The position numbers and the translations under genes were made by a program. A stretch of 64,000 nt of DNA from Microvirga ossetica (GTDB lineage Bacteria > Pseudomonadota > Alphaproteobacteria > Rhizobiales > Beijerinckiaceae), in assembly GCF_002741015.1 (NCBI RefSeq), contig NZ_CP016616.1:2513501-2577500 (forward strand), read 5' to 3'. Below the pieces are notes generated by a model. The model saw nothing but the letters and a program-made list of their open reading frames with translations, was not told the origin of the DNA and ran no database searches. This document shows positions 20,723 through 51,956 of this stretch, in pieces. The stretch's first letter is position 1. The number at the start of each line of letters is the position of its first letter.

Positions 20723-21097
20723 CTATGACTTTTGATGCGCGATGATGCGATCCTTGATTGCATCATAGGCGTTCTGCGGAATGATCTTCTTGTCGACGAG
20801 CTCGTTCTTGCCCCTGTAAGGGCGCCCCTTGATGATGGCATCGGCCCGCGCCGAGCCGATCTCGGGCAGCTTGTCGAGCTCGTCCTTGGGAGCGGTGTTG
20901 ATGTCGATCAGGGCGCTCGTGGACGATGTCGTGCTGGGAACCGGCTTGGCCGGGCTCGTTGACGGAGCGGTACTGGCCATCGGCGGCTTTGCCGCCGAAC
21001 CGGGCATGGACGTGCCGGGCGCCGCGGTTTGCGCGAGAGCCGGTGAGGCGAGCAGGGAACCAAGAGCGATCAACGCTCCTAGACGGGAGAGGCGCAT
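20723..21097 (-). CDS. Exported helix-hairpin-helix (ComEA-like) protein
   Basis: A 124-residue secreted protein. The signal peptide covers about residues 1-23 (ends PALAQ), followed by a Pro/Ser/Thr-rich linker of ~40 residues. Then comes one helix-hairpin-helix pair: LIDINTAPKDELDKLPEIGSA and RADAIIKGRPYRGKNELV. The fold binds double-stranded DNA in ComEA. No other competence gene is near, so a DNA-uptake role is open. GAGG lies 5 bases before the ATG at 21097. Confidence 0.82.
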   Translation of the reverse strand: MRLSRLGALIALGSLLASPALAQTAAPGTSMPGSAAKPPMASTAPSTSPAKPVPSTTSSTSALIDINTAPKDELDKLPEIGSARADAIIKGRPYRGKNELVDKKIIPQNAYDAIKDRIIAHQKS

Positions 21098-21320
21098 TGT
21101 AACCTCGTTCAATGGCCGGACTTGCTAGGGCTTCGGCCCGGCTTCCTCGAAGCACCGGATCAACGCGCAGCCAGGCTGGAACGATCCGTTTTCATCCGGT
21201 CGGAATTCAGGTTCACGAAGCTATAGGCGGATTGCGAGCCCATCACCTGAAGTCTATCGCTCCGGGCGTGCGACCTCCCGCCCCTTCCCCGGCCCTCGCC
21301 AGCGCCCCATCTTCATGCTA

Positions 21321-21335
21321 GAACAAAACGAGAAC
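21321..21335 (-). promoter_or_regulatory. LexA (SOS) box before the radical SAM/UdgX genes
   Basis: GAAC-AAAACGA-GAAC, i.e. GTTC-TCGTTTT-GTTC on the other strand, is a perfect fit to the LexA box of Hyphomicrobiales and Rhodobacter. The AT-rich, T-tract inner bases also look right. It ends 17 bases before the ATG at 21353, where it would overlap the promoter. Confidence 0.7.
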
Positions 21336-21352
21336 AATTGTGCGGAAGATCC

Positions 21353-22567
21353 ATGGACGAGAAGCTTAGCCGGAAGCTGCGCATCCTGGCGGACGCGGCG
21401 AAATACGATGCCTCCTGCTCCTCCTCCGGCGCGCCCAAGCGCAAGGCGGATGCGGGCGGCCTGGGTTCCACGGTGGGAACCGGCATCTGCCACGCCTACA
21501 CGCCGGACGGGCGCTGCGTATCCCTGCTCAAGATCCTGCTCACCAATTACTGCCTGTTCGACTGCGCCTATTGCGTCAATCGGCGCTCGTCCAACGTGAA
21601 GCGGGCGAAGTTCTCCGTCGACGAGGTGGTGACGCTCACGATCGAGTTCTACAAGCGCAACTATATCGAGGGTCTGTTTCTCTCCTCGGGCATCATCCGC
21701 TCGCCCGACTACACCATGGAGCAGATGATCCTGGTGGCGAAGAAGCTGCGCCGCGACCACGGCTTTCGCGGCTATATCCACCTGAAGACGATTCCCGAGG
21801 CGAGCCCCTGGCTGATCGAGGAGGCGGGCCTGTGGGCCGACCGCCTGTCGATCAACCTCGAACTGCCGACGGAGAAGAGCCTGGAACGGCTGGCGCCAGA
21901 GAAGGACGGCGCCTCGATCGAGACCGCCATGGCGCAGATGTCAGAGCGCATCGAGGAAGCCCGCGAGGAGCGGCGCCATTTCTCGCCCGCCGGCCAATCG
22001 ACGCAGATGATCGTGGGCGCCGACGAGACCACGGACGAGGATGTCCTGCGCACCTCCGCCAAGCTCTACGGTCATTACGCCATGAAGCGCGTCTATTATT
22101 CCGCCTTCAGCCCGATCCCGGATTCGAGCGCGATCCTGCCCCTGAAATCGCCGCCGCTGATGCGCGAGAACCGGCTCTATCAGGCCGATTGGCTTTTACG
22201 CTATTACGGCTTCGACGTGGACGAGATCGCGGCCAGTGGCGACAAGGGTATGCTCGATCTCGACATCGACCCGAAGCTCGCGTGGGCGCTGAAGAACCGC
22301 CACCGCTTCCCGGTCGATGTGAACATCGCGGATCGCGAGATGCTGCTGCGCGTGCCGGGCCTCGGGGCACGGGCAGTCGACAAGATCGTGGTGGCGCGCA
22401 AACACACGACATTGCGGCTCGAGGATATCGCCCGCCTGACCTCGGGACTGAAACGCGCCAAGACTTTTCTCATCACAGCCGATCATCACCCGAAGGCCAG
22501 GCTCGACAAACTCGACCTGCGCGAGCGGCTGATCGAGAAGCCGGAACAGCTGAGTTTGTTCGGATGA
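21353..22567 (+). CDS. Radical SAM protein linked to UdgX (putative DNA modification/repair)
   Basis: A 404-residue radical SAM enzyme of the subfamily encoded beside UDG-like proteins. The iron-sulfur cysteines are Cys67, Cys71 and Cys74 in NYCLFDCAYC. A helix-hairpin-helix unit near residues 319-350 (VDVNIADREMLLRVPGLG) suggests DNA binding, and DHHPKARLDK follows. The ATG at 21353 places the start right after a LexA-type box. The next plus-strand gene is the DUF4130-UdgX fusion, 169 bases on, separated by a repeat. The reaction is unknown; a role in uracil or damage handling is inferred from linkage. Confidence 0.87.
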   Translation: MDEKLSRKLRILADAAKYDASCSSSGAPKRKADAGGLGSTVGTGICHAYTPDGRCVSLLKILLTNYCLFDCAYCVNRRSSNVKRAKFSVDEVVTLTIEFYKRNYIEGLFLSSGIIRSPDYTMEQMILVAKKLRRDHGFRGYIHLKTIPEASPWLIEEAGLWADRLSINLELPTEKSLERLAPEKDGASIETAMAQMSERIEEAREERRHFSPAGQSTQMIVGADETTDEDVLRTSAKLYGHYAMKRVYYSAFSPIPDSSAILPLKSPPLMRENRLYQADWLLRYYGFDVDEIAASGDKGMLDLDIDPKLAWALKNRHRFPVDVNIADREMLLRVPGLGARAVDKIVVARKHTTLRLEDIARLTSGLKRAKTFLITADHHPKARLDKLDLRERLIEKPEQLSLFG

Positions 22568-22578
22568 GCAGAGGTTCA

Positions 22579-22728
22579 GCGTGTCATCCCGGACGAAGCG
22601 CAGCGCAGATCCGGGATCGCGAGACGAGTGAGACGCTACCAGCCTTCCTCCACAAGGAGGGAGGGGAGACCCGAGCTACGCTCGTCCAACGATCCCGGAC
22701 CGCCTGCGGCGTCCGGGATGACGAAAGA
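22579..22728. repeat. ~150-bp composite palindromic element inside the radical SAM/UdgX unit
   Basis: It starts TCATCCCGGACGAAGCGCAG and ends CGGCGTCCGGGATGACG, with a CCACAAGGAGGGAGGG core. The same order of parts occurs at 51713-51864. RNA across it could fold into a long stem between the two genes. Confidence 0.75.
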
Positions 22729-22736
22729 GAGATGGC

Positions 22737-24179
22737 GTGAATCTCCACCGCATCACCCTGAAGACCGGCGCCGATCGCCACACCTTCCGCCATGCGGTGC
22801 GATGGCTGATCGCAGAGGAGCTGGCGCCGCAGCACGTGGTCTTCGAGGTCGACGATGCGCCTGCGCTGTTCGGTGACGATGTGGCCGGCGATGCACCGGC
22901 CGTGTCGATTCCGAAGGGCGTGGCCCGGCTCGTCGAGCATGCGGTCTGCCACAGCGATCCGGAACGCTATGCGCTGCTCTACCGGCTCGTCTGGCGCGTG
23001 CTCAACGGCGAGCGCGATCTGCTGGAGGTCGCCAGCGATCCGCTGGTGCACCGGCTCGATCTCATGGCGCGCTCCGTGCGGCGCGACCTGCACAAGATGC
23101 ACGCCTTCGTGCGCTTCCGCCGCATGCACCATGAAGGCCTCGAACGCTTCGCCGCCTGGTTCGAGCCGGAGCATTTCATCCTGGAAGCGGCGGCACCGTT
23201 CTTCGTCGACCGGTTTCGCTCGATGGACTGGACGATCCTCACCCCCATCGGCTCCGTGCGCTGGGACCGCGCGGCGCTGAGCTTCGGCCCGCCCGCACGG
23301 CGTGAGGACGCGCCCGATGCGGACAGCTTCGAGGAGGGCTGGCGTGGCTATTACGAGAGCGTGTTCAACCCGGCGCGGGTGAACCCGACCGCCATGCGCG
23401 CCGAGATGCCGAAGAAGTACTGGCACAACATGCCGGAGACAGCAGCGATTCCCGGCCTGATCCAAACCGCCGTCCGGCGCGTTGACCGGATGATCGAACA
23501 GGAGGCGACGATGCCTGCCAAACGCACCCCCGAACGGGCTCTCGAGGCCATGTGGGATCAGGAGCCGAAAAGCTTGAGAGAGCTCAACGCGATCATCGCC
23601 AAGGCGGGGCCGCTGGTGCCCGGCGCCACCCAGGCGGTGTTCGGCGAGGGCCCTGTCCATGCCGACATCGTCTTCGTCGGCGAGCAGCCGGGCGATCAGG
23701 AGGACCTGCAGGGACAGCCCTTCGTGGGACCTGCCGGCAAGCTCCTCGACAAGGCCATGAGAGACGCCGGGATCGACCGTTCCCAGGCCTATCTCACCAA
23801 TGCGGTGAAGCACTTCAAATTCGAGCTGCGCGGCAAGCGCCGCATCCATGCGAAGCCGACCACCGGCGAGGTGAAGCATTACCGGCCCTGGCTGATGAAG
23901 GAGCTGGAGCTGGTCAAGCCGAAGCTCGTGGTGGCGCTCGGCGGAACGGCGCTCCTCGCGCTCACCGGCAAGTCGACCCCGATCACCCGCTCGCGCGGAC
24001 GCGCCCGCTTCGGCGGTTACGAAGGCTATGTGACCGTACACCCATCCTACCTGCTGCGCCTGCCCGACGAGGCGACGAAGCAGGAGGCCTACGAGGCTTT
24101 CGTGAGCGACCTGCGCCGCATCCACGATCTCGCTCAGGCCGACCTCGATACCGGCGAGCTGCCGCTGGCGGCGGAGTAA
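22737..24179 (+). CDS. udgX: DUF4130-UdgX fusion: uracil-DNA cross-linking glycosylase
   Basis: A 480-residue fusion. Residues ~1-245 form the DUF4130 domain (RRDLHKMHAFVRFRR, EHFILEAAAPFFVDRF). Residues ~265-475 form a UdgX domain with GEQPGDQEDLQG near 315 and the diagnostic KRRIH loop at 367-371. In mycobacterial UdgX the loop His (here His371) attacks the abasic sugar and stays covalently bound to uracil-containing DNA. HPSYLLR is the distal active-site motif. The GTG start is just past the repeat element. It probably works with the preceding radical SAM protein. Confidence 0.9.
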   Translation: MNLHRITLKTGADRHTFRHAVRWLIAEELAPQHVVFEVDDAPALFGDDVAGDAPAVSIPKGVARLVEHAVCHSDPERYALLYRLVWRVLNGERDLLEVASDPLVHRLDLMARSVRRDLHKMHAFVRFRRMHHEGLERFAAWFEPEHFILEAAAPFFVDRFRSMDWTILTPIGSVRWDRAALSFGPPARREDAPDADSFEEGWRGYYESVFNPARVNPTAMRAEMPKKYWHNMPETAAIPGLIQTAVRRVDRMIEQEATMPAKRTPERALEAMWDQEPKSLRELNAIIAKAGPLVPGATQAVFGEGPVHADIVFVGEQPGDQEDLQGQPFVGPAGKLLDKAMRDAGIDRSQAYLTNAVKHFKFELRGKRRIHAKPTTGEVKHYRPWLMKELELVKPKLVVALGGTALLALTGKSTPITRSRGRARFGGYEGYVTVHPSYLLRLPDEATKQEAYEAFVSDLRRIHDLAQADLDTGELPLAAE

Positions 24180-30713: not shown

Positions 30714-30789
30714 GTCCGCAATCTGCCCCGTTACGTCGATTCTGTCAGCGCAGCCGTTTGCCGCTCCCAGGAACGTATCGAGAACGCCT

Positions 30790-51634: not shown

Positions 51635-51956
51635 GCGAGGGACATGGTGGCGGTTTCGTTGCTTCGTCCGGATAGAGCACGAAATGCGTCGATGACAAAG
51701 TCGTCCCTCATCGTGTCATCCCGGACGGCAGAGCCGATCCGGGATCGTCTTCAGAATGAGGCACTGGCAACCCTCTCCCCTCACAAGGAGGGAGGGAAAC
51801 AGCGCTCCATCCTGCACGCGATCCCGGATCTTCGCTACGCTTCGTCCGGGATGACGAAAGAGACAACAATGCCGGTTCGATCTTCCCCCGCTCCATGATA
51901 CGAAGCACGCCAGCGCCCCAGGCAACAACCCGAACAACAACCATTGAGAGAGCGGC
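51635..51956. other. Divergent gap with a composite repeat (fec-type permease / aminotransferase)
   Basis: No gene is seen in these 322 bases. A ~150-bp palindromic element fills 51713-51864. The remaining ~80-90 bases at each side should contain the two promoters. TTGAGAGAG lies just before the aminotransferase ATG. Confidence 0.5.
51713..51864. repeat. ~150-bp composite palindromic element, second copy
   Basis: It starts TCATCCCGGACGGCAGAGCC and ends GCTTCGTCCGGGATGACGAA, with a CACAAGGAGGGAGGG core. It has the same architecture as 22579-22728, including the trailing GAAAGAGA. Confidence 0.75.

What the first reader, a model, noticed from the sequence alone, without database searches (positions are those of the whole stretch)
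21321..24179. SOS-controlled radical SAM + DUF4130-UdgX fusion: a candidate uracil-capture repair unit
Seen: a perfect GAAC-N7-GAAC box 17 bases before the first gene; a radical SAM protein with CxxxCxxC and a helix-hairpin-helix; then a fusion whose UdgX half keeps the KRRIH loop with His371. Known: UdgX binds uracil-DNA covalently through that His, and the radical SAM/DUF4130 families are linked to it. Inferred: the radical SAM enzyme and the DUF4130 domain modify or release the trapped site. The chemistry of this pair is not described as far as I know.
Basis: partly seen in the sequence, partly recalled or inferred. Interest (0 to 1): 0.75.

Follow-up and report, generated by a model that had tools for sequence, protein, structure and literature searches.

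The report
SOS operon of radical-SAM repair proteins
A soil bacterium carries a two-gene DNA-damage operon, found in many related bacteria and very probably switched on by the SOS alarm, whose radical enzyme and partner domain look like the working core while the uracil-trapping part looks like an optional attachment; what the core does to DNA is still unknown.

Summary
A GAAC-N7-GAAC box (21321-21335) lies 17 bases before a radical SAM gene (TIGR03916), followed by a DUF4130-UdgX fusion. All eleven UdgX residues checked are kept, including the trapping His371. Both the pairing and its SOS control are already in print, so this Microvirga locus is a new member of a known kind.

Added here: (1) the box follows lineage: present at 80 of 80 close loci; in 38 further operons from a 249-genome Pseudomonadota sample, 27 of 27 alphaproteobacterial ones carry GAAC-N7-GAAC and 8 of 11 others a perfect CTGT-N8-ACAG. 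(2) The core is radical SAM + DUF4130 (39 of 39); no UdgX over cut-off in 10 of 39, 8 of which keep the box; 0 of 7 UdgX genes without DUF4130 have one. So modifying or releasing UdgX's trapped site cannot be the core job. (3) The DUF4130 model resembles DHH/DHHA1 proteins (RecJ, Cdc45): suggestive, weak. (4) The radical SAM protein has three extra invariant cysteines and its model is nearest lipoyl synthase, PFL-activase and HydE, so a second iron-sulphur cluster is possible.

Chemistry and substrate remain unknown; nothing was tested at the bench.

The parts
21321..21335 (+). LexA-type box GAACAAAACGAGAAC, 17 bases before the ATG of the first gene
   Evidence: a box in one of two orientations upstream of the gene in 80 of 80 close loci
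21353..22567 (+). radical SAM protein, 404 aa (TIGR03916, rSAM_link_UDG; COG4277 by recall)
   Evidence: 569 bits, cut-off 343.5; PF04055 residues 62-234
21416..21517 (+). codons C22 to C55, spanning three extra cysteines C22, C46, C55 that are invariant; possible auxiliary Fe-S site
   Evidence: invariant in 39 of 39, 46 of 46 and 10 of 10 sequences; each set includes the window's protein
21551..21574 (+). CLFDCAYC, the CxxxCxxC radical SAM cluster motif (C67, C71, C74)
22310..22405 (+). helix-hairpin-helix stretch (residues 320-351, with VPGLGARAVDKIV)
   Evidence: PF12836 21.1 bits, below cut-off 27; P335, G336 and G338 invariant in 39 of 39
22583..22722 (+). imperfect inverted-repeat element between the two genes
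   Evidence: terminal 13-nt inverted repeats 100% complementary; a related end at 51833-51855; the gap between the genes in 27 Microvirga loci runs from -4 to 253 bp
22737..24179 (+). DUF4130-UdgX fusion, 480 aa, GTG start
22737..23450 (+). DUF4130 part (TIGR03915), residues 1-238; invariant H119, R126, E143, P144, R159, W165, W202, Y205, R214, P225, W229, E234
   Evidence: 197.1 bits, cut-off 112.25; conservation; model mbcd0e61f0952
23451..24179 (+). UdgX part (TIGR03914), residues 239-480
   Evidence: 298.1 bits, cut-off 189.95; best solved UdgX chain E 8.5e-44
23835..23849 (+). R-loop KRRIH, residues 367-371; His371 codon 23847-23849
   Evidence: His invariant in 28 of 28 aligned UdgX sequences from these operons

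Best explanation
This is an SOS-induced two-gene DNA-damage operon. LexA bound at the box holds it off; after damage the cell makes a DNA-binding radical SAM enzyme (helix-hairpin-helix tail, possibly a second Fe-S site from C22, C46 and C55) together with its near-obligate partner DUF4130. I think DUF4130 is a DNA-holding scaffold with a RecJ/Cdc45-like (DHH/DHHA1) topology that presents a damaged strand to the radical SAM enzyme, which alters the lesion by a radical reaction. In many lineages, this one included, a UdgX domain is fused on; it should excise uracil and stay covalently attached to the abasic site through His371, so it probably works as a lesion finder or protective clamp that brings the core to uracil or abasic sites. 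Shown by computation: gene content, box and its lineage-specific form, partner rules, residue conservation. Inferred: LexA repression, uracil trapping by this protein, auxiliary cluster, scaffold role. Unknown: the lesion and the reaction.
Confidence: 0.55

Rival explanations
1. One reading: UdgX traps uracil-derived abasic sites covalently, and the radical SAM enzyme with DUF4130 then modifies or releases that protein-DNA crosslink.
For: UdgX is fused to DUF4130 and encoded beside the radical SAM gene; the trapping residues are intact; M. smegmatis UdgX makes the crosslink (passages).
Against: 10 of 39 radical SAM-DUF4130 operons lie in genomes with no UdgX over cut-off, 8 of these keep the LexA box, and the invariant DUF4130 residues do not differ between the two groups. 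Seven UdgX genes without DUF4130 exist with no box.
Confidence: 0.15
2. A SplB-type photolyase: the radical SAM protein reverses a thymine lesion directly, as suggested for the SplB-like proteins linked to DUF4130.
For: [quoted passage not shown] SOS control; helix-hairpin-helix tail.
Against: PMC8565304 lists SplB (COG1533) apart from the COG1573-COG4277 operon. No spore photoproduct lyase model among the 13 NCBIfam families touched by the 46 proteins of alignment A1, and none named in the 50 structural rows shown, led by lipoyl synthase, PFL-activase and HydE; three extra invariant cysteines. Absence from such lists does not exclude it.
Confidence: 0.15
3. A DNA or nucleotide modification system rather than repair: the radical SAM enzyme adds a group (for instance sulphur or methyl) to bases during SOS, and UdgX polices the outcome.
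For: Weak family kinship and model similarity to lipoyl synthase, HydE and ThiH; extra invariant cysteines; NCBI's own name hedges 'modification/repair'.
Against: No evidence of a modified base was sought or seen; SOS control fits damage handling better than constant marking.
Confidence: 0.15

Closest known systems
[quoted passage not shown]
   Same: All three models score over their cut-offs and the gene order is that of the relatives; close relatives bear these names.
   Different: Nothing essential seen; the inverted-repeat element between the genes is absent from Microvirga loci in which the genes abut.
Mycobacterium smegmatis UdgX
   Same: All eleven residues checked are identical, including E52/H109 (here E316/H371).
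   Different: Here fused to DUF4130 and encoded with a radical SAM enzyme under a LexA-type box; the solved UdgX chains are only 205-229 aa.
SOS-regulated COG1573-COG4277 operon reported for Bacteroidetes, Verrucomicrobia and Caulobacter
   Same: COG4277 is, by recall, the same radical SAM/HhH protein; SOS control of a UDG-based two-gene operon is described (passages of PMC8565304; the Verrucomicrobia and Caulobacter papers it cites were not held).
   Different: That work calls it a uracil-DNA glycosylase system; here 10 of 39 operons lie in genomes without UdgX over cut-off, and some DUF4130 proteins with no UDG domain are named UDG by a source (some may be fragments), so the UDG label may not hold everywhere.
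RecJ / Cdc45 / DHH-DHHA1 superfamily (for the DUF4130 part)
   Different: Shorter (238 residues) than the RecJ and Cdc45 chains it matches; no sequence profile match, in a test whose positive control failed; only D101 and D196 stand out as conserved Asp; Foldseek TM-scores low.
Lipoyl synthase / HydE / PFL-activase radical SAM folds
   Different: Has a helix-hairpin-helix tail; the extra cysteines have a different spacing (C22-x23-C46-x8-C55) from the lipoyl synthase CX4CX5C (recalled).

Membership tests
TIGR03916 radical SAM family | score over curated cut-off across nearly the whole model | tested here: met
   569.2 bits, cut-off 343.5, model 1-401 of 415
TIGR03915 / DUF4130 | score over curated cut-off | tested here: met
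   197.1 bits, cut-off 112.25; PF13566 137.6, cut-off 27
UdgX (TIGR03914) | score over cut-off, motif A GEQPG and R-loop KRRIH with the nucleophilic His | tested here: met
   298.1 bits, cut-off 189.95; GEQPG 315-319, KRRIH 367-371
UdgX (TIGR03914) | covalent complex with uracil-DNA | not testable with these tools
   needs protein and an SDS-stable crosslink assay
LexA regulon | operator in the promoter, conserved in relatives | tested here: met
   80 of 80; 27 of 27 alpha and 8 of 11 other loci; not in G133 and G153, and with a mismatch in L216
LexA regulon | host has LexA and uses this box | tested here: met
   one lexA over cut-off; box just upstream of lexA and of all three recA
LexA regulon | LexA binding and damage induction | not testable with these tools
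   needs gel shift and expression assay
SplB / spore photoproduct lyase | match to an SPL model or fold | tested here: inconclusive
   no SPL row; absence from a list is not exclusion
DHH-DHHA1 superfamily (DUF4130 part) | fold match well above unrelated folds | tested here: inconclusive
DHH-DHHA1 superfamily (DUF4130 part) | DHH metal-binding motif | tested here: inconclusive
   the string DHH occurs in 8 of 39 sequences; its place in the fold was not established
Lipoyl synthase | N-terminal CX4CX5C auxiliary cluster motif (recalled) | tested here: not met
   extra cysteines are C22, C46, C55, a different spacing; LipS2 20.8 bits, cut-off 270

The most novel reading that the evidence does not exclude
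DUF4130 is a RecJ/Cdc45-like DNA-holding protein that has lost its nuclease site and has become the scaffold of a new kind of SOS repair machine: it presents a damaged strand to a two-cluster radical SAM enzyme that performs a base or sugar reaction not seen in known repair, with UdgX as an optional covalent clamp that marks uracil-derived sites for it.
Probability: 0.22. Interest if true: 0.85.

Novelty: new member of a known kind. Interest (0 to 1): 0.5.

Why it matters
The physiological role of UdgX and of the radical SAM-DUF4130 pair is unsettled. Finding that SOS control and conservation belong to the radical SAM-DUF4130 core, with UdgX as an add-on, changes the experiment: test the UdgX-free pair first. 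The LexA box follows the lineage (GAACN7GAAC in 27 of 27 alphaproteobacterial operons, CTGTN8ACAG in 8 of 11 others, neither in a genome without LexA over cut-off), which argues that damage induction is selected. The structural leads (DHH/DHHA1-like DUF4130, extra cysteines in the radical SAM enzyme) give concrete, cheap tests of what could be an undescribed DNA repair chemistry.

Tried and rejected
Whole-genome count of the box as evidence of regulation: rejected, 288 against 289 for the reversed pattern. The box at 30771 lies inside open frames rather than in an evident promoter; not used.

A gene replacing UdgX in UdgX-less operons: one search scanned eight flanking frames from seven of the ten such loci (L207 twice, L208, L209, L210, L211, L213, L214). 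Five matched unrelated families (cytochrome peroxidase, LivM-like permease, phosphopantetheinyl transferase, glycosyltransferase, PilT) and three matched nothing; a ninth (L212) overlaps the operon on the other strand and tells nothing. No replacement found, but the look was partial.

Profile-profile test of DUF4130 against RecJ and AlaRS DHHA1: a first script was faulty (mixed families, an empty file, an overlap artefact); the repeat gave nothing, and the RecJ-AlaRS positive control also failed, so it is uninformative. PDB sequence searches gave no convincing solved relative of the radical SAM protein (best E 0.02, HydG-type 4wcx) or of DUF4130 (best E 0.11). No spore photoproduct lyase appears.

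Literature: searches (open-access library only). No paper on the chemistry of this pair turned up; 'UdgX' with 'radical SAM' together: 0 papers. I saw passages only of PMC3765255, PMC8565304, PMC7739468, PMC10359453, PMC10776899, PMC13130816 and PMC9611098, the abstract of one unrelated paper, and search listings for the rest.

Full report
What is there. The window comes from a 9.63 Mb genome whose closest named relatives are Microvirga (97% identity to the M. zambiensis radical SAM protein). At 21321-21335 lies GAACAAAACGAGAAC; 17 bases later an ATG (21353) opens a 404-residue radical SAM gene, and after a 169-base gap a GTG (22737) opens a 480-residue DUF4130-UdgX fusion. The radical SAM protein is TIGR03916 at 569 bits (cut-off 343.5); the fusion is TIGR03915 at 197 (112.25) and TIGR03914 at 298 (189.95). 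His371 is the last residue of KRRIH, and eleven residues studied in M. smegmatis UdgX map to identical residues here.

Is the box more than chance? As a bare pattern, no: 288 in the genome against 289 for the pattern read backwards. By position, yes. All 80 have the box within 150 bp upstream: 59 in the window's orientation and 21 reversed, the latter all at -16, against 0 of 80 for the reversed pattern and a background of 12 per 591,381 bases in the rest of those loci. These loci are related to one another, so the wider sample counts more. From 249 genomes drawn over Pseudomonadota, 39 (the window's own included) hold the radical SAM gene over cut-off. In the 38 others, 27 of 27 alphaproteobacterial operons carry GAACN7GAAC (21 in one orientation, 6 in the other), and 8 of 11 others carry a perfect CTGTN8ACAG, one more with a mismatch; 100 shuffles give a mean of 0.29 and 0.02, and neither group carries the other's perfect box. 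Control patterns in the same regions: one exact and two one-mismatch matches; one-mismatch CTGTN8ACAG also occurs in 2 of the 27 alpha loci, so the mismatched site is near chance. The two operons without any box sought are G133, whose genome has no LexA over cut-off (62.8 bits, peptidase half only, cut-off 110.95), and G153, whose lexA carries a TTAGN6TACTA box that its radical SAM gene lacks; the second is a true exception. LexA was over cut-off in 15 of the 16 genomes checked, of 39. In the window's own genome the single lexA over cut-off and all three recA genes have the box just upstream.

Who belongs to the unit? DUF4130 over cut-off occurs in 41 of 249 genomes: the same 39 plus G258 and G275. 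In all 39 it lies in the same locus as the radical SAM gene, though three loci (L221, L222, L241) have about 0.5 to 2.8 kb between the two frames. UdgX over cut-off occurs in 38 genomes, 29 of them with the radical SAM gene. So 10 of 39 core pairs lie in genomes without UdgX over cut-off, and 8 of those 10 keep the box. Conversely, 7 UdgX genes without DUF4130 have no box of the three kinds sought. G130, with only a DUF4130 remnant before UdgX, and G258 and G275, with DUF4130-UdgX but no radical SAM match, keep the box. In M. dankookense and M. symbioticum DUF4130-UdgX sits elsewhere in the genome without a perfect box in the fetched stretch. Four gut-derived records and a contig labelled Acinetobacter phage, which holds glyS and glyQ and is probably bacterial chromosome, also have radical SAM plus a separate DUF4130 and no UdgX match in the stretch fetched. 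DUF4130's invariant residues (H119, R126, E143, P144, R159, W165, W202, Y205, R214, P225, W229, E234) are the same in the 29 UdgX-bearing and the 10 UdgX-free sequences. The operon itself is patchy: 29 of 36 other genomes of the genus have the radical SAM gene. I conclude that the regulated, conserved unit is radical SAM plus DUF4130, with UdgX as an attachment.

What is already known. [quoted passage not shown] PMC8565304 reports predicted SOS control of a two-gene COG1573-COG4277 operon in Bacteroidetes, apart from SplB (COG1533), and cites it for Verrucomicrobia and Alphaproteobacteria. An Acinetobacter radical SAM protein of this name rises on desiccation (PMC13130816). So pairing and SOS control are not new. 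I did not find the UdgX-optional core, the box following the lineage across Pseudomonadota, or the DUF4130 fold lead in the searches named under Tried and rejected, which cover open-access text only.

Verdict. Observation confirmed; interpretation half right. SOS control: about 0.9. UdgX as accessory to a radical SAM-DUF4130 core: about 0.7. DHH/DHHA1 kinship of DUF4130: about 0.5. The chemistry is open.

Noticed in passing
L263, L264 (G030:C14, about 196.5-268.9 kb): In one genome of the same genus the radical SAM gene is interrupted between residues 69 and 71, inside CxxxCxxC, by about 72 kb with a phage-type integrase gene near one side and HipA, Fic and AAA genes; no direct repeat of 10 or more bases near the junctions; a GAACN7GAAC site is visible near one end of the insert.
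   Followed up: partly
window 22583-22722 and 51833-51855: Inverted-repeat element between the two genes with a related end elsewhere in the window; the gap varies from -4 to 253 bp among 27 Microvirga loci.
   Followed up: partly
L258, L259, L260: The genome has three recA genes over cut-off on two contigs, each with a GAACN7GAAC box just upstream.
   Followed up: partly
L256, L257 and three further places in G000: Five copies with identical score (33.8 bits, residues 2-70 of the LexA model, 115-aa frame) of a short LexA-like protein on contigs C1 and C3: perhaps a multicopy mobile gene.
   Followed up: no
L252, L253 (G258, G275): DUF4130-UdgX with the LexA-type box kept but no radical SAM match in the genome.
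   Followed up: partly
L270, L271: In Methylobacterium dankookense and M. symbioticum the DUF4130-UdgX gene lies away from the radical SAM gene.
   Followed up: partly
rows such as P0131, P0150, P0152: Some proteins with DUF4130 but no UDG domain are named uracil-DNA glycosylase or DNA polymerase by a source (some may be fragments), which may inflate claims that UDGs belong to SOS regulons.
   Followed up: no
L268 (CAKLQH020000003.1): A 240-kb record labelled Acinetobacter phage carries glyS and glyQ near the radical SAM gene; it looks like bacterial chromosome.
   Followed up: no
PQ571268.1, 45696-46214: A Bacteroides phage record has a DUF4130 gene at its very end; carried gene or host flank not settled.
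   Followed up: no
plasmids collection: 158 plasmid records hold the radical SAM gene, 58 of them Phaeobacter, 142 predicted non-mobilizable.
   Followed up: no
window 20723-21112, - strand: A divergent small gene upstream of the operon encodes a helix-hairpin-helix (PF12836) protein; found in 9 of 27 Microvirga loci.
   Followed up: partly
L221, L241 (G287, G299): More than 2 kb of other DNA lies between the radical SAM and DUF4130 frames in these two loci; in L221 I read most of that stretch.
   Followed up: partly
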